A DNA stretch of 64,000 nt, from NCBI GenBank assembly GCA_003054495.1, contig CP028514.1:794501-858500 (forward strand), written 5' to 3'. Each line of letters opens with the position of its first letter. Positions within the stretch are counted from its first letter, which is position 1. The translations under genes and the position numbers were made by a program. This DNA comes from Carboxydocella thermautotrophica (GTDB lineage Bacteria; Bacillota; GCA-003054495; Carboxydocellales; Carboxydocellaceae). The notes below the pieces were generated by a model. The model was not told where the DNA came from. It did not search any database and saw nothing but the letters and a program-made list of their open reading frames with translations. Of this stretch, positions 1,342 through 61,895 are shown piece after piece.

Positions 1342-1346
1342 AATTG

Positions 1347-1431
1347 AGTGTTCACAACCGCACGAAAGGGGCCGGAAAATGGCCGACAGGCCTGCCTGCT
1401 TTCGGCGAGTCTGGAATAGGGAGGTGCAAGC
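1347..1431 (+). promoter_or_regulatory. Possible L21 leader (ribosomal-protein leader) upstream of rplU
   Basis: About 85 untranslated bases between the promoter and the rplU ribosome-binding site contain complementary GGCC/GGCC and GCC/GGC segments that can fold into stacked hairpins ending at GGGAGGTG. A conserved L21 leader is known at this position in Firmicutes. I recognise the position and hairpin potential, not a full consensus match, so this is tentative. Confidence 0.4.
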
Positions 1432-9967: not shown

Positions 9968-10061
9968 TTTCCAGCTTCGGCAACCTGGCAATCATAGCCC
10001 TGGAGGGGCCTTAGACCCATGGCTTTGCGCCCCCATCTTTCGATGGGTTTGCCTTTATCGA
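9968..10061 (-). promoter_or_regulatory. Cyclic di-GMP-I (GEMM-I) riboswitch aptamer
   Basis: Read on the minus strand, the aptamer landmarks appear in order: AAAGGCAAACC, a hairpin with a GAAA loop (CCCATCGAAAGATGGGG), GCGCAAAGCCA, GGGTCTAAGG, and after a short variable arm CTATGATTGCCAGGTTGCCGAAGC. These are the conserved GEMM-I elements (GNRA tetraloop, receptor, GCAAAGCCA joint). It precedes a terminator and then the HD-GYP gene on the same strand, so c-di-GMP probably controls transcription of that gene. Direction of control cannot be read with certainty. Confidence 0.92.
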
Positions 10062-10105
10062 CTGTTTTGCATTTTATTGTATAGCACAAATTTAATCTAC
10101 TAAAT

Positions 10106-11702: not shown

Positions 11703-11721
11703 ATCGGACAAAATGGTAATT

Positions 11722-11965
11722 TAATGGCGATGAAGGGGAAGAGTACCTTATTAGCCGGTTGACAGAGAGCCGCTGGCTGGTGGAAAGCGGTAACCGCCAT
11801 AGGGGAACTGGCCCCGGAGCTGGAAAGGCGAACCCGCTGGCAGTAGTCTTTCCCGGCCGCCGCCGTTACCGGCAGCAAGGGGATCGGGCTTTTTGAGTCC
11901 GGTCAATTTGGGTGGTACCGCGGAAGCAAGGCCTTTCGTCCCAAGGGGGAGGAAAGGCTTTTCTA
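11722..11965 (+). promoter_or_regulatory. T-box leader (leucine) upstream of leuS
   Basis: tRNA-sensing leader. Stem I carries AGAGAGCCGCTGGCTGG and GGAAAGCGG; the specifier codon is probably CTG (Leu) at 11808-11810, in the context GGGGAACTGGCCCCGGAG. The T-box proper is GGTGGTACCGCGG (11911-11923), which pairs with the uncharged tRNA acceptor end. A terminator follows: GCCTTTC (11931-11937) with GAAAGGC (11952-11958) and TTTTCT. Uncharged tRNA-Leu should favour the antiterminator and leuS expression. Confidence 0.96.
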
Positions 11966-38211: not shown

Positions 38212-38252
38212 ATGATGGTGGTATGCAGCAGCTTCAGAAAACTAGACTATAA

Positions 38253-38281
38253 TTGATTGTATTTAACTGTTTTGCTACATT
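38253..38281 (+). promoter_or_regulatory. Promoter inside the left end of TnpB element copy 1
   Basis: TTGATT (38253-38258), 17-base spacer, TACATT (38276-38281). The next ATG begins only 7 bases later, so transcripts may be leaderless. Copy 2 has TACAAT at the same place. Confidence 0.6.
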
Positions 38282-38287
38282 AAAGGT

Positions 38288-38344
38288 ATGGAACTATTAT
38301 CCATTGGAGAAGCAGCAAAGTCCGGCAGGGTTTCGGGGAGCTGA
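38288..38344 (+). pseudogene. Remnant of IS607-type tnpA (18 codons)
   Basis: MELLSIGEAAKSGRVSGS then TGA. The first 11 residues match the usual start of an IS607-family serine transposase (MerR-like helix-turn-helix, IGEAAK). The rest of tnpA is missing. The TGA is in frame with tnpB, two codons before its ATG. Copy 2 has the same peptide with three silent changes. It may be a translated leader for tnpB (GGGGAG lies at its end) or only a scar. Confidence 0.65.
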
Positions 38345-38350
38345 TCAGGA

Positions 38351-40039
38351 ATGCCAAAGAAACACGAGAAGAACAAATTTAGCATAACTGTGTGCGGGGA
38401 GTTTTTTCCGGAGATTTACCCGGCTCACCGGTCTTCGAAGTGGAGCCGGGGCGAAGAAGACCCGCTGACTACGGAGATGCGTCTCTTCTGTGCCTGTATG
38501 CGGTGGGCCTTTAACCGGCTCCTGGAAGGTGCTTCCCGCCATGAAATCAAGAAGTCAGGACAAGAACTTTTCGGGCTGAACTCCCGCTATGCGGATGATG
38601 CCAGACTTAAAGCACAGGCCCTGCTGGACTCCCAAACAGAACTGCTGAAGTTAGAAAATGAAGAAACAGAAAAGAAACTGGGCCGGGCCAGGAAGAAACT
38701 CAGCCTGGCTATGAGGAAACTGGCGAAGGCAGAGGAAAAGGGGGCTGCTTCAGAAGTTATTGAAAAGCTCCGCCTGGCAGTCAAGGGGCGGAACAAGCGG
38801 GTGGTTTCACTGGCAAAAAGGCTGGCTGAACTGAAGGATTACCAGGAGAAGGGTACAATACCAGAGGTAGTCTTTGGGGGCAGAAGGCTATGGGAAAAGG
38901 TCTGCCAGGGCCGGGCCGCCCGTGAAAAATGGCGGCACGCCCGCAGGAATCGCCTCTACTCCCGGGGAGACGAGAGCAAGGGAGGCAACCCCAACATTAA
39001 GATATTTTATGACGGACAGGACTTCCGCCTGGCGGTTTCCCTCTCCCACCTTTCTGAACAGACAGGCATAGATAAACTTGGTCGCCCCAGGATGAGCCAG
39101 GCCCCCAGGGTTGAGGGCAAGTTGTGGCTGCCGGAAAAACACCGGGAACTGGTGCAGATATGGCTGACCATGAAGTTACCCTATGCGGTAGAACTGATCC
39201 GCACCCTGGAAGGACGCTATTTGGTACATTTGACATTTGAAGTGGTCAGGGTGCAGGAACCGGACTTTGCTAAAGGTTGTCTGGCTATAGACACAAACCC
39301 TGATGGGGTAGCCCTGTGTAACGTTAGCGCTTCCGGCCAGCCGGAACCGTGGCCGGAGGGTTTTAATATTCCTTATCCCGGCAACCTGGGTAAGTACGAA
39401 GGAGAGTTTCAGGTTATTCCTTACCCGAACGGATTCATGTACATCAGAATACCAGACTTAGCCCATGCTTCCAGCTTCCGGCGTAGCTACCTGATAGGCG
39501 TTTTAGCCAAAGTAGTGGTAGATATAGCTTTCTTTTTAGGCAAACCCATTGTTTTAGAAAACCTGAACTTTGGCAAAGACAGGCTGGACACTAATAAAAA
39601 GTTTAACCGCATGGCTTCCAATTTTCCATTTGCGAAAATGGTAGGAGCAATGTATCGGAGAGCGGTAAAAGAAGGGGTGCCTTTCAAGTTAGTATCACCC
39701 CGGCATACTTCAACCATAGGTTACTGGAAGTATATGAAACGTTACGCCGTTCCGGTGCATTGCGCGGCGGCACTGGTTACAGGACGCCGGGCAATGGGCT
39801 TCAGGGAACGGGTGACTATAGAACTCAGGCAACTGGTATCGCAAATCAAGCAAAACCTGACCCGGAAGGATAATCCTGATAGACCTGGGGAAGGAAAAGG
39901 GATGACCCGTGGGGTCAGGGCCTGCTTGAGGCGGCTGGAGGAGAGGCTTTCTGTGCATAACGGGCTTGCCCAGAGTGAACAGGAGGCGTATAACTCCGTC
40001 TGGCCTGACCTGAAGTTATTGGCCCTGTCCGTACGGTGA
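38351..40039 (+). CDS. TnpB-like (IS605 OrfB-type) RuvC protein, copy 1
   Basis: 562 residues. RuvC-I Asp314 (CLAIDTNPDGVAL) and RuvC-II Glu403 (IVLENLNF) are visible. The third block reads VPVHCAAALVTGRRAMGF (about 468-485): where TnpB usually has Asp in a D-x-NAA context, this has His470-Cys471. The CxxC zinc finger usually found between RuvC-II and III is absent. The N-terminal part has a basic helical stretch (about 100-200). TnpB proteins are RNA-guided nucleases; the altered site means activity needs testing. Differs from copy 2 at 18 residues; both frames are intact. Confidence 0.85.
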   Translation: MPKKHEKNKFSITVCGEFFPEIYPAHRSSKWSRGEEDPLTTEMRLFCACMRWAFNRLLEGASRHEIKKSGQELFGLNSRYADDARLKAQALLDSQTELLKLENEETEKKLGRARKKLSLAMRKLAKAEEKGAASEVIEKLRLAVKGRNKRVVSLAKRLAELKDYQEKGTIPEVVFGGRRLWEKVCQGRAAREKWRHARRNRLYSRGDESKGGNPNIKIFYDGQDFRLAVSLSHLSEQTGIDKLGRPRMSQAPRVEGKLWLPEKHRELVQIWLTMKLPYAVELIRTLEGRYLVHLTFEVVRVQEPDFAKGCLAIDTNPDGVALCNVSASGQPEPWPEGFNIPYPGNLGKYEGEFQVIPYPNGFMYIRIPDLAHASSFRRSYLIGVLAKVVVDIAFFLGKPIVLENLNFGKDRLDTNKKFNRMASNFPFAKMVGAMYRRAVKEGVPFKLVSPRHTSTIGYWKYMKRYAVPVHCAAALVTGRRAMGFRERVTIELRQLVSQIKQNLTRKDNPDRPGEGKGMTRGVRACLRRLEERLSVHNGLAQSEQEAYNSVWPDLKLLALSVR

Positions 40040-40283
40040 CCCCGTTTAGCCGGTGTCGGAGAAACCGGTAGGCGTCCTAACAGGACGCGGGAGGCGGAGT
40101 TATACTCCCACCGGGAGGTCAGCATAAACCGGTGCAGTACTCCCGTCCGGGTGGAACTCCCGGGCCGAGGTCCCCTGTCGCCCTGCCCCGCGGGGGTAAA
40201 TCAAGTATTCGGAAAGGAGGCGAAATCCTGGTCTGGGGGCCAACTTGGCTGGAGATAAAAACAGTCAAGTTTTTTGAACCAGG
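40040..40283 (+). ncRNA. Probable omega (guide) RNA of TnpB element copy 1
   Basis: 244 bp downstream of tnpB to the element end, GC-rich with many hairpins: GCGTCCT/AGGACGC (40072-40088), GGAGT/ACTCC (40096-40108), CCGGG/CCCGG (40147-40163) and CCCCGCGGGG (40186-40195). It differs from copy 2 at 2 positions only. This is the expected place of the right-end RNA that guides TnpB. The guide would begin at 40284, TTGGGCAAATG..., which covers the prmA start. Exact ends are unknown. Confidence 0.55.
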
Positions 40284-40291
40284 TTGGGCAA

Positions 40292-41230
40292 ATGAAGTGG
40301 CAGGAAATTCAGGTGACTGTCCACCGGGATGGAGTGGAAGCGGTAGCCAATATTCTACATGAGACTGGAGCCAATGGAGTAATCATCGAAGACCCGCAGT
40401 TGAAATGGCAATACATTGAGGAGAAACGCTGGGATTATTATGAATTTCCCGAGGAAGAGGCGGGTGATCCCGATCTGGTGGTGGTCAAGGCTTACCTGCC
40501 CGAAGGAACAAAGCTGGCCGCCCAGGTGGAAGATGTGAAGCGGGCGGTCAATGACCTGAAACATTATCATTTGCCCGGACTCTATTGTGAACTGGCCTTT
40601 TCCCTGGTTGATGATCAGGACTGGGCGACCTCCTGGAAAAAATATTTTAAAACGGAAAAAATAGGAGAGAAGATAGTGATCAAACCCACCTGGGAGGATT
40701 ATCAGGCTCAGGATGGGGAGATCGTGGTAGAACTGGATCCGGGGATGGCCTTTGGCACTGGAACCCATCCCACTACTGCCATGTGTATCCGGGCCCTGGA
40801 AAAACTTTTCCCCGGTCCCAGAGTTGTCTATGATGTGGGCACCGGTTCTGGCGTGCTGGCCATCGTGGCCGCTAAACTGGGGGCAGAAGATGTCCTGGCC
40901 ATCGATCTGGATGAAACGGCGGTCAAGGTGGCCTGGGAAAATGCCGACCAGAATGATGTCACCCATATTGTCCGGGTGGAAGAAGGCAATTTGCTGGATA
41001 CAGTGGCCGAGCCCGCGGATTTGATTATCGCCAACATTATCGCTGATATCATCATCATGGTTACACCGGCAGTAAAGGAACACCTGCTGCCTGGTGGCCG
41101 GTTCCTCTGTTCCGGCATTATCGAGGAAAGGGAACAGGAGGTCAGGGCTGCCCTGGAGGTCAGTGGCCTGACTATAGTGGAAACCTGGCGGGATAGCGGC
41201 TGGGTAGCTATGCTGGCCGAAAGGAGATAG
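40292..41230 (+). CDS. prmA: Ribosomal protein L11 methyltransferase
   Basis: 312 residues; trimethylates lysines of L11. SAM domain: LDPGMAFGTGTHPTTAM, VYDVGTGSGVLAIVAAKLGA and NIIADII. Start at ATG 40292 (MKWQEIQVTVHRDGVEA) is typical; the upstream extension to 40274 is in the TnpB element. Native Shine-Dalgarno was displaced by the insertion; only AGG of the element right end remains at a useful distance. Operon with rsmE. Confidence 0.95.
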   Translation: MKWQEIQVTVHRDGVEAVANILHETGANGVIIEDPQLKWQYIEEKRWDYYEFPEEEAGDPDLVVVKAYLPEGTKLAAQVEDVKRAVNDLKHYHLPGLYCELAFSLVDDQDWATSWKKYFKTEKIGEKIVIKPTWEDYQAQDGEIVVELDPGMAFGTGTHPTTAMCIRALEKLFPGPRVVYDVGTGSGVLAIVAAKLGAEDVLAIDLDETAVKVAWENADQNDVTHIVRVEEGNLLDTVAEPADLIIANIIADIIIMVTPAVKEHLLPGGRFLCSGIIEEREQEVRAALEVSGLTIVETWRDSGWVAMLAERR

Positions 41231-59400: not shown

Positions 59401-59435
59401 AGGAGGTGCAGCAGCTTCAGAAAACTAGACTATAA

Positions 59436-59464
59436 TTGATTGTATTTAACTGTTTTGCTACAAT
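59436..59464 (+). promoter_or_regulatory. Promoter inside the left end of TnpB element copy 2
   Basis: TTGATT (59436-59441), 17-base spacer, TACAAT (59459-59464), better than copy 1; the remnant ATG follows after 6 bases. Confidence 0.62.
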
Positions 59465-59470
59465 AAAAAA

Positions 59471-59527
59471 ATGGAACTATTATCCATTGGTGAAGCAGCA
59501 AAGTCTGGCAGGGTTTCGGGGAGTTGA
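59471..59527 (+). pseudogene. Remnant of IS607-type tnpA (copy 2)
   Basis: Same 18 residues as in copy 1 (MELLSIGEAAKSGRVSGS), three silent third-base differences, TGA, in frame with tnpB. Confidence 0.65.
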
Positions 59528-59533
59528 TCAGGA

Positions 59534-61222
59534 ATGCCAGAGAAACACGAGAAGAACAAATTTAGCATAACTGTGTGCGGGGAGTTTTTTCCGGAGATTT
59601 ACCCGGCTCACCGGTCTTCGAAGTGGAGCCGGGGCGAAGAAGACCCGTTGACTACGGAGATGCGTCTCTTCTGTGCCTGTATGCGGTGGGCCTTTAACCG
59701 GCTCCTGGAAGGTGCTTCCCGCCATGAAATCAAGAAGGCAGGACAAGAACTTTTCGGGCTGAACTCCCGCTATGCGGATGATGCCAGACTTAAAGCACAG
59801 GCCCTGCTGGACTCCCAAACAGAACTGCTGGAGTTAGAAAATGAAGAAACAGAAAAGAAACTGGGCCGGGCCAGAAAGAAGCTCAGCCTGGCTATGAGGA
59901 AACTGGCGAAGGCAGAGGAAAAGGGGGCTGCTTCAGAAGTTATTGAAAAGCTCCGCCTGGCAGTCAAGGGGCGGAACAAGCGGGTGGTTTCACTGGCAAA
60001 AAGGCTGGCTGAACTGAAGGATTACCGGGAGAAGGGTACAATACCAGAGGTAGTCTTTGGGGGCAGAAGGCTGTGGGAAAAGGTCTGCCAGGGCCGGGCC
60101 GCCCGTGAAAAATGGCGGCACGCCCGCAGGAATCGCCTCTACTCCCGGGGAGACGAGAGCAAGGGAGGCAACCCCAACATTAAGATATTTTATGACGGAC
60201 AGGACTTCCGCCTGGCTGTTTCCCTCTCCCACCTTTCTGAACAGACAGGCATAGATAAACTTGGTCGCCCCAGGATGAGCCAGGCCCCCAGGGTTGAGGG
60301 CAAGTTGTGGCTGCCGGAAAAACACCGGAAACTGGTGCAGATATGGCTGGCCATGAAGTTACCCTATGCGGTAGAACTGATCCGCACCCTGGAAGGACGC
60401 TATTTGGTACATTTGACATTTGAAGTGGTCAGGGTGCAGGAACCGGACTTTGCTAAAGGTTGTCTGGCTATAGACACAAACCCTGATGGGGTAGCCCTGT
60501 GTAACGTTAGCGCTTCCGGCCAGCCGGAGCCGTGGCCGGAGGGTTTAAATATTCCTTATCCCGGCAATCTGGGCAAATACGAAGGAGAGTTTCAGGTTAT
60601 CCCTTACCCGAACGGCTTTCTTTATATCAGAATACCAGACTTAGCCTATGCTTCCAGCTTCCGGCGTAGCTACCTGATAGGCGTTTTAGCCAGAGTAGTG
60701 GTAGATATAGCTTTCTTTTCAGGCAAACCCATTGTTTTAGAAAATCTGAACTTTAGCAAAGACAGGCTGGACACTAATAAAAGGTTTAACCGCATGGCTT
60801 CCAATTTTCCATTTGCGAAAATGGTAGGAGCAATGTATCGGAGAGCGGTAAAAGAAGGGGTGCCTTTCAAGTTAGTATCACCCCGGCACACGTCCACCAT
60901 AGGTTACTGGAAGTATATGAAACGTTACGCCGTTTCAGTGCATTGTGCGGCGGCACTGGTTATAGGTCGTCGGGCAATGGGGTTCAGGGAACGGGTGACT
61001 GAAGAACTCAGGCAACTGGTATCGCAAATCAAGCAAAACCTGACCCGGAAGGTTAATCCTGATAGACCTGGGGAAGGAAAAGGGATGACCCGTGGGGTCA
61101 GGGCCTGCTTGAGGCGGCTGGGGGAGAGGCTTTCTGTGCATAACGGGCTTGCCCAGAGTGAGCAGGAGGCGTATAATTCCGTCTGGCCTGACCTGAAGTT
61201 ATTGGCCCTGTCCGTACGGTGA
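59534..61222 (+). CDS. TnpB-like RuvC protein, copy 2
   Basis: 562 residues, 96.8% identical to copy 1 (18 changes). Same RuvC-I Asp314 and RuvC-II Glu403, same altered third block (SVHCAAALVIGRRAMGF), no zinc finger. Changes cluster near the RuvC half, including G408S and P468S. The frame is intact in both, which argues for recent activity or selection. Confidence 0.85.
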   Translation: MPEKHEKNKFSITVCGEFFPEIYPAHRSSKWSRGEEDPLTTEMRLFCACMRWAFNRLLEGASRHEIKKAGQELFGLNSRYADDARLKAQALLDSQTELLELENEETEKKLGRARKKLSLAMRKLAKAEEKGAASEVIEKLRLAVKGRNKRVVSLAKRLAELKDYREKGTIPEVVFGGRRLWEKVCQGRAAREKWRHARRNRLYSRGDESKGGNPNIKIFYDGQDFRLAVSLSHLSEQTGIDKLGRPRMSQAPRVEGKLWLPEKHRKLVQIWLAMKLPYAVELIRTLEGRYLVHLTFEVVRVQEPDFAKGCLAIDTNPDGVALCNVSASGQPEPWPEGLNIPYPGNLGKYEGEFQVIPYPNGFLYIRIPDLAYASSFRRSYLIGVLARVVVDIAFFSGKPIVLENLNFSKDRLDTNKRFNRMASNFPFAKMVGAMYRRAVKEGVPFKLVSPRHTSTIGYWKYMKRYAVSVHCAAALVIGRRAMGFRERVTEELRQLVSQIKQNLTRKVNPDRPGEGKGMTRGVRACLRRLGERLSVHNGLAQSEQEAYNSVWPDLKLLALSVR

Positions 61223-61466
61223 CCCCGTTTAGCCGGTATCGGAGAAACCGGTAGGCGTCCTAACAGGACGCGGGAGGCGGAGTTATACTCCCACCGGGAG
61301 GTCAGCATAAACCGGTGCAGTACTCCCGTCCGGGTGGAACTCCCGGGCCGAGGTCCCCTGTCGCCCTGCCCCGCGGGGGCAAATCAAGTATTCGGAAAGG
61401 AGGCGAAATCCTGGTCTGGGGGCCAACTTGGCTGGAGATAAAAACAGTCAAGTTTTTTGAACCAGG
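61223..61466 (+). ncRNA. Probable omega (guide) RNA of TnpB element copy 2
   Basis: 244 bp right end with the same hairpins as copy 1 and two differences only. The predicted guide starts at 61467 (ATTGACATGAAAC...), over the cdd start. Confidence 0.55.
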
Positions 61467-61472
61467 ATTGAC

Positions 61473-61895
61473 ATGAAACTAACGGAACAGCAAATCCAGC
61501 AGCTGATCAGTGAAGCCATTGCAGCCCAGCAAAAGGCCTATGCACCCTATTCCCACTTTCGGGTAGGGGCAGCGCTGCTGGGTAAATCTGGCCGCATATA
61601 TCAGGGCTGCAATGTGGAAAATGCCTCTTATGGTTTGACCAATTGTGCTGAGCGGACTGCTATTTTCAGGGCTGTTGCGGAAGGAGAAAGGGATTTTGTG
61701 GCGCTGGCTTTGGTGGGAGATATAGCTGAACCCTGCTCCCCCTGTGGCGCTTGCCGCCAGGTGATGGTGGAATTTAACCCTGACCTGCAGGTGATAATGG
61801 CAGCACCGGACGGAAGTTACCGCCTAACCACGGCTGCCCAGTTATTGCCGGGATTTTTCAGCCCCCGGGCATTGCCCGCAGGAAAGGAGGAGTAA
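61473..61895 (+). CDS. cdd: Cytidine deaminase
   Basis: 140 residues, zinc-dependent, tetrameric. Motifs NCAERTAI (Cys and Glu) and PCSPCGACRQV (zinc Cys pair). Pyrimidine salvage, dgkA-cdd-era order as in Bacillus. Its own ribosome-binding site was cut off by the TnpB element; the element right end provides only AGG. Confidence 0.96.
   Translation: MKLTEQQIQQLISEAIAAQQKAYAPYSHFRVGAALLGKSGRIYQGCNVENASYGLTNCAERTAIFRAVAEGERDFVALALVGDIAEPCSPCGACRQVMVEFNPDLQVIMAAPDGSYRLTTAAQLLPGFFSPRALPAGKEE

What the first reader, a model, noticed from the sequence alone, without database searches (positions are those of the whole stretch)
38224..40283. Two identical-length TnpB elements carry the same tnpA deletion, so the deleted form itself has moved
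Copy 1 (38224-40283) and copy 2 (59407-61466) are both 2060 bp. Both keep only 18 codons that look like the start of an IS607 serine transposase, then TGA, then tnpB in the same frame. The same scar in both places means the loss came before duplication; mobilisation would need a tnpA supplied elsewhere in the genome or another mechanism. The 18-codon peptide differs only by three silent changes.
Basis: partly seen in the sequence, partly recalled or inferred. Interest (0 to 1): 0.72.

Follow-up and report, generated by a model that had tools for sequence, protein, structure and literature searches.

The report
Transposase-less IS607 copies that still spread
A bacterial jumping gene lost most of its own transposase gene, yet this crippled form came to sit at many places in the genome, each time just in front of a gene's start codon, so it was most likely moved by an enzyme supplied from elsewhere.

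Summary
Both copies are 2060 bp, 97% identical, with the same tnpA scar. The genome holds 20 places with this element. Of 18 copies that keep the tnpA region, 15 share the scar at unrelated sites; 3 carry other tnpA deletions.

Relatives in other Bacillota (TnpB 57-81% identical) with intact IS607-type tnpA show what was lost: tnpA codons 1-11 are joined, out of frame, to the last 62 nt of tnpA (about 553 bp gone). So the 18-codon peptide is 11 tnpA codons plus a shifted tail, and over all copies it is not kept as a peptide. What remains is 99 bp of left end (IS1535 TnpA needs 69-84 bp) and the tnpB start region. TnpB looks selected (dN/dS 0.28). The only intact tnpA in the genome belongs to another element (38% identity). 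A second genome has its own shared scar beside an intact cognate tnpA.

Unexpected: 19 of 19 copies with a right end lie 1-11 nt before a start codon, and 15 of 18 left ends follow GGAGG, the Shine-Dalgarno sequence.

Best reading: IS607 satellites mobilised in trans. Such an origin was already proposed for TnpB-only elements; the step series and the ribosome-binding-site placement are newer.

The parts
38217..38221 (+). left flank of copy 1, GGTGG (Shine-Dalgarno-like); last GG is the probable crossover core
   Evidence: sequence; flank table
38222..38320 (+). left end kept by copy 1, 99 bp up to the scar
   Evidence: alignment with 18 other copies and with intact relatives
38288..38320 (+). 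tnpA codons 1-11 (MELLSIGEAAK)
   Evidence: relatives with intact tnpA
38320..38321 (+). deletion scar AAAG|TCCGG, about 553 bp of tnpA missing
   Evidence: 15 of 18 copies; distance tnpA ATG to tnpB ATG 616 nt in L094 and 63 nt here
38321..38382 (+). last 62 nt of tnpA, out of frame with the start, overlapping tnpB
   Evidence: relatives; tnpA-frame stop TAG at 38380 by eye
38351..40039 (+). tnpB copy 1, 562 aa
   Evidence: guided_TnpB 97.8 bits (cut-off 100) and TIGR01766 38.2 bits (cut-off 32)
40040..40283 (+). conserved right end of copy 1, probable guide-RNA scaffold, ending TTTTTTGAACCAGG
   Evidence: alignment of 15 right ends, consensus fold
40292..41230 (+). gene in front of which copy 1 sits; ATG 8 nt after the right end
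59402..59406 (+). left flank of copy 2, GGAGG
   Evidence: sequence, flank table
59407..59503 (+). left end kept by copy 2, up to the same scar
59471..59503 (+). tnpA codons 1-11 of copy 2
59504..59565 (+). tnpA 3' tail of copy 2, overlapping tnpB
59534..61222 (+). tnpB copy 2, 562 aa
   Evidence: 96.6 and 37.5 bits
61223..61466 (+). right end of copy 2
61473..61895 (+). gene in front of which copy 2 sits; ATG 6 nt after the right end

Best explanation
The two copies belong to a non-autonomous, tnpB-bearing satellite of an IS607-family transposon. Shown: the scar lies in an IS607-type tnpA that relatives keep whole; the deleted form, with about 99 bp of left end, tnpB, its start region and the right end, is at 15 unrelated sites in this genome. 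Inferred: it was moved in trans by a serine transposase that binds the kept ends and recombines at GG. Inferred: the 11 tnpA codons survive as part of the left-end binding platform, not as a peptide, and the tnpA tail survives because it holds the tnpB ribosome-binding site. Inferred: TnpB and its guide RNA still serve the element at a GGAGG-like motif, which would explain the selection on tnpB. The element sits between Shine-Dalgarno and start codon, in the gene's direction.
For: 15 of 18 copies share the scar, each with its own flanks and downstream gene. Intact tnpA with ATG in 10 of 25 relative loci read. c2365422 keeps 25 intact tnpA codons, so an intact ancestor was once here. c0238625 and c2063991, at unrelated sites, share a 198-bp deletion inside tnpB and group with support 0.979, so that form seems to have moved as well. 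In G114 three copies share another tnpA scar, beside an open cognate tnpA with the same left end. IS607 needs only TnpA to transpose, and IS1535 TnpA needs 69-84 bp of left end; 99 bp are kept (PMC6188088, abstract and passages). tnpB dN/dS 0.28 over 13 copies.
Against: No cognate tnpA in this genome now; the one intact tnpA is 38% identical, and free alignment of its ends with the family's ends is no better than shuffles (left 1920 of 2000 shuffles as good or better, right 590 of 2000). Copies recombine: c0056027 and c2681257 share a 148-bp tnpB deletion but do not group, and c2681257 looks mosaic, so a shared scar could in part come from gene conversion. No empty sites were available. Among the 11 codons the counted changes are mostly silent (48 silent against 12 amino-acid differences summed over pairs of 13 copies), which taken alone would favour a kept peptide; they come from very few events, and two copies with broken or changed peptides were left out of that count.
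Confidence: 0.74

Rival explanations
1. Gene conversion: full-length copies spread first with their own tnpA, and the deleted version later overwrote them by recombination between copies.
For: c2681257 looks mosaic, and two copies share a 148-bp deletion without grouping in the tree. Copies with other tnpA content exist (3 of 18).
Against: No full-length tnpA copy of this family is left. 15 of 18 copies would have to be converted while differing by 0.8-6.3% in tnpB. The pair with the 198-bp deletion groups by descent yet lies at two unrelated sites.
Confidence: 0.15
2. The lone distant TnpA of this genome (2194467-2195021) is the present helper.
For: It is the only intact IS607 tnpA. Its element also follows GGAGG, and in fixed register its ends match 12 of 14 bases left and 9 of 10 right.
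Against: 38% identity. Free alignment of the ends is not above shuffles. The short terminal match recurs throughout the clade, so it need not mean shared recognition. The boundary of that element is not proven.
Confidence: 0.2
3. The 18-codon frame is a working leader peptide that couples translation to tnpB.
For: In frame with tnpB and ends 6 nt before its ATG; only silent changes between the two window copies.
Against: Other copies have E2G, E8K, S12F, S12Y or a frameshift, and c1969658 has an open 562-aa tnpB without it. Seven of its codons are out-of-frame sequence made by the deletion.
Confidence: 0.08
4. The kept tnpA bits are only leftovers of chance deletions, with no function.
For: Scars differ: c1969658 keeps only about 50 bp of left end, G114 keeps about 42 codons.
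Against: The common form has both ends and an open tnpB in most copies, and the single-copy form c1969658 is the one with the shortest left end; with so few scars this is weak.
Confidence: 0.2

Closest known systems
TnpB-only insertion sequences (IS1341, IS809, IS1136 type)
   Same: tnpB as the only whole gene; proposed in print as possible non-autonomous derivatives of IS607 or IS200/IS605 elements 'where TnpA is deleted' (PMC3627910, passages)
   Different: here the parent family, the scar, several alternative scars and a genome with satellite plus intact copy can be pointed to
IS607, IS1535, ISC1926 (IS607 family with serine TnpA)
   Same: intact relatives have a serine-recombinase tnpA overlapping tnpB, and GG at both ends
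   Different: tnpA deleted; flank is GGAGG rather than (G)GG with no further pattern (PMC6188088, passages)
IS607 TnpBs with RAGATH-18-derived RNA (ISFba1)
   Same: measured target motif AGGAG in 18 of 22 strains, found beside the left end; of two-ORF loci 30% have a broken TnpA (PMC11061315, passages)
   Different: ISFba1 TnpB is 387 aa with D-E-D; here 562 aa, no C4 finger, His at the third position; no Rfam match of the right end

Membership tests
IS607 family | serine-recombinase tnpA of the NF033518 type in the full-length form | tested here: met
   in relatives, over the cut-off in 8 of 8 chosen genomes; in the window copies only codons 1-11 and the 3' tail remain
IS607 family | GG at both ends and no target duplication | tested here: met
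   right ends end in CCAGG; 17 of 18 left flanks have GG in register, copy 2 (c0853907) has its GG two bases nearer; no repeat of flank seen by eye; no empty site to prove it
IS607 family | transposition by TnpA through a circle | not testable with these tools
   needs an assay
IS200/IS605 family | Y1 (HUH) transposase as mover | tested here: not met
   no Y1_Tnp match in this genome; relatives have a serine tnpA
TnpB RNA-guided nucleases | TnpB profile match | tested here: inconclusive
   TIGR01766 over its cut-off, guided_TnpB just under it; Pfam gave nothing of the kind
TnpB RNA-guided nucleases | RuvC D-E-D and C4 zinc finger | tested here: not met
   D314 and E403 align, third position is His470, no C4 finger; the same in the relatives with intact tnpA
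TnpB RNA-guided nucleases | cleavage with guide RNA next to a motif | not testable with these tools
   needs an assay

The most novel reading that the evidence does not exclude
A clade of IS607 elements has specialised on the ribosome-binding site: the transposase target (GGAGG), and presumably the TnpB target motif, is the Shine-Dalgarno sequence itself. Each copy then stands between Shine-Dalgarno and start codon, and its guide reads the first codons of the gene behind it. With His in place of the third RuvC Asp, TnpB may bind rather than cut, and the tnpA-less copies could be turning into RNA-guided controllers of host genes.
Probability: 0.1. Interest if true: 0.75.

Novelty: new variant of a known kind. 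Interest (0 to 1): 0.47.

Why it matters
How TnpB-only elements arise and move has been a proposal. Here one genome holds a graded series: a remnant with 25 intact tnpA codons, several different scars, one scar at 15 sites, and a further tnpB deletion at two sites. A second genome repeats it with an intact copy still present. That makes trans-mobilisation of tnpB satellites, and the question of why tnpB is kept in them, directly testable. The placement between Shine-Dalgarno and start codon suggests how such an element can enter gene-dense DNA with little harm.

Tried and rejected
Y1/HUH transposase as mover: no Y1_Tnp match in the genome. Viral carriers: scan of viral contigs with an alignment of 5 TnpBs, 43 pattern matches, no relative. 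Plasmids: 50 records matched, all under 60% identity. The phage collection was not searched. Rfam: nothing at the right end at gathering scores; at E up to 10 two chance-level matches. TnpB structure: predicted from 5 sequences, mean pLDDT 50, not used, no fold search made. Solved structures by sequence: one unrelated hit at E 0.78. Ends of the lone tnpAB element against the family. Empty site of that lone element: the joined frame stays open for 94 aa, but none of the other 60 genomes searched has a homologue, so the boundary is unproven. Consensus fold of the right end: 46 pairs, 13 with a change on both sides, no control run, middle columns poorly aligned. I guessed the organism from recall (Carboxydocella) and looked for papers (two listed, nothing on this element); no tool named it.

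Papers: eight searches of the held library. None listed named the Shine-Dalgarno as IS607 target; most subscription papers are not held. Passages only were seen of PMC10711439, PMC6188088, PMC3627910, PMC4227781, PMC11061315, PMC9956272 and PMC13418256, and starts of abstracts in the listings.

Dropped rows: c0450524 (38 bp of left end) is out of the alignment and the start-codon count. c0465086 has no left end; c2379398 lost the outer 27 bp. The tree leaves out c0465086 and c2365422 (17 copies). dN/dS used 13 copies, pairs not independent; the 11-codon count used 13 copies without c0931272 and c0056027. Right ends of relatives: 16 exact ones counted from 24 loci. In one search the rows L033, L036 and L095 were wrong reading frames and are disregarded. 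c2365422 is misaligned and was read.

Full report
WHAT IS THERE. The two copies are as described: 38224-40283 and 59407-61466, 2060 bp each, 97% identical. Each has an ATG, 18 codons, TGA, and 6 nt later tnpB (562 aa) in the same frame; the 18 codons differ by three silent changes. TnpB scores just below the cut-off of guided_TnpB (97.8 and 96.6 of 100 bits) and above that of TIGR01766; Pfam gave no TnpB match.

MORE COPIES. A search of the window's own genome (2.74 Mb, 2 contigs, 99.6% complete) with copy 1 gave 32 matching stretches, which I joined into 20 places. 19 reach the right end; one is a 38-bp left-end piece. Of the 19, 11 carry an open tnpB of 555-566 aa (one of them the 76%-identical c1969658), two an in-frame shortened one of 496 aa, and six are broken, cut or without a tnpB start. 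Each copy has its own flanks and its own downstream gene.

WHAT THE SCAR IS. Relatives in other Bacillota encode TnpB of 57-81% identity; weaker matches in further genomes are not used here. Of 25 relative loci read, 10 have a tnpA that starts with ATG and stays open (L094, L095, L107, L109, L112, L114, L115, L117, L118, L131); in L117 it runs in one frame into tnpB. The others have frameshifts, stops, deletions, a lost start, masked bases, or only part of the element. tnpA begins MELL(S/T)I(G/S)(E/K)AAK and overlaps the tnpB start. Against these, the window copies keep tnpA codons 1-11, then the scar AAAG|TCCGG, then the last 62 nt of tnpA. From tnpA ATG to tnpB ATG there are 616 nt in L094 and 63 nt here, so about 553 bp are gone and the frame shifts. 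Seven of the 18 codons are therefore out-of-frame sequence.

HOW MANY COPIES SHARE IT. Of 18 copies that keep the region, 15 share the scar, with single base changes around it in some. Three do not: c1969658 runs from about 50 bp of left end into the tnpA 3' end; c2365422 keeps 25 tnpA codons and then jumps into tnpB; c2681257 shares the 3' breakpoint but has tnpA sequence of about codons 56-71 before it and has lost the start. So tnpA was lost more than once, and one deleted form became common. c2365422 shows that an ancestor with more of tnpA was once here.

A SECOND LAYER. c0238625 and c2063991, at unrelated sites, share a 198-bp in-frame deletion inside tnpB (788-985) and group with support 0.979; this shorter form seems to have moved too. 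c0056027 and c2681257 share a 148-bp frameshifting deletion (774-921) but do not group, and c2681257 looks mosaic; recombination between copies is likelier there. That weakens the use of shared deletions as proof of movement.

A SECOND GENOME. In G114 three copies (L099, L103, L104) share another scar, tnpA near codon 42 joined to near codon 170, L103 with a decayed 5' part; L100 and L101 have other deletions and L102 lacks the start. One more copy in that genome, at a contig end, has an open tnpA (222 aa frame) with the same left end (L131). There satellite and possible helper live together. In the window's genome the profile finds one tnpA only, 38% identical to L094 TnpA, in another tnpAB element.

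WHY THESE PIECES SURVIVE. In IS1535 paired-end complexes need about 84 bp of left end, with weaker assembly down to 69 bp (PMC6188088, passages). Copy 1 keeps 99 bp from the GG core, so the 11 codons lie in or next to such a platform. The tnpA tail carries GGGGAG and AGG before the tnpB ATG, a likely ribosome-binding site (by eye). Over all copies the peptide is not kept: E2G, E8K, S12F, S12Y, one frameshift, and c1969658 without it. Against this, within 13 copies the differences in the 11 codons are mostly silent (48 to 12 summed over pairs), but they stem from two silent and one amino-acid change, and the copies with E2G and the frameshift were not in that count. Base variation is 1.62% in the 11 codons, 1.81% in tnpB, 1.53% in the right end and 5.75% in left-end positions 28-64. 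tnpB has dN/dS 0.28.

WHERE THEY INSERT. 15 of 18 left ends follow GGAGG in register; copy 1 has GGTGG, c0931272 has GAAGG, and copy 2 has GGAGG two bases nearer. In 19 of 19 copies with a right end a start codon of a frame of 60 aa or more follows after 1-11 nt. By the same loose rule 56 of 168 GGAGG sites in the window outside the two copies pass (33%), and 17% of GG sites; 18 of 18 by chance would be 2.6e-9 and 1e-14. The rule was set after seeing the sites. In relatives 12 of 16 right ends pass a 0-12 nt rule (misses L094, L097, L105, L112). The 14 left ends printed all follow GGAGG (one base further off in L096); L104 has AGAGG. So the elements stand between Shine-Dalgarno and start codon, in the gene's direction. 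Target choice, survival of harmless insertions, or both could do this. IS607 itself shows (G)GG without further pattern. For a set of IS607 TnpBs the measured motif is AGGAG in 18 of 22 strains (PMC11061315, passages), which fits. The lone tnpAB element also follows GGAGG, but inside a small reading frame.

TNPB. D314 and E403 align with the first two catalytic residues; the third Asp of ordinary TnpBs aligns with His470, and there is no C4 finger. The same holds in the relatives with intact tnpA and in several more distant TnpBs, while L080 and L081 have Asp there. So this belongs to the clade and did not follow from losing tnpA. Whether the enzyme cuts is unknown. The right end is conserved and foldable but has no Rfam name.

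COMPARISON. TnpB-only elements were proposed as possible non-autonomous derivatives 'where TnpA is deleted' (PMC3627910, passages). Newer here are the visible steps and the placement in ribosome-binding sites. The genes behind copies 1 and 2 look like prmA and cdd; these names are recalled and were not searched.

Noticed in passing
19 right ends in G000, among them window 40284-40294 and 61467-61475: Every copy with a right end sits 1-11 nt before a start codon, mostly after GGAGG, so the element lies between Shine-Dalgarno and start codon.
   Followed up: yes
window 39755-39766 (TnpB residues around His470): The third RuvC Asp is His in this TnpB and in relatives with intact tnpA; the C4 zinc finger is missing.
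   Followed up: partly
L033 (G000:C1:2191500-2197000, - strand): The genome's only intact IS607 tnpA, in a different tnpAB element (TnpB about 476 aa) that also follows GGAGG, inside a small reading frame.
   Followed up: partly
L122 (copy c2681257): A mosaic copy: same 3' breakpoint as the common scar, but tnpA sequence of about codons 56-71 before it, and a tnpB deletion shared with a copy it does not group with.
   Followed up: partly
L117 (G036:C7): tnpA and tnpB lie in one open frame of 782 aa, a possible fused product.
   Followed up: no
window 9976-10063 (-), 11721-11946 (+), 1346-1422 (+): Rfam matches to a c-di-GMP-I riboswitch, a T-box leader and an L21 leader; ordinary.
   Followed up: no
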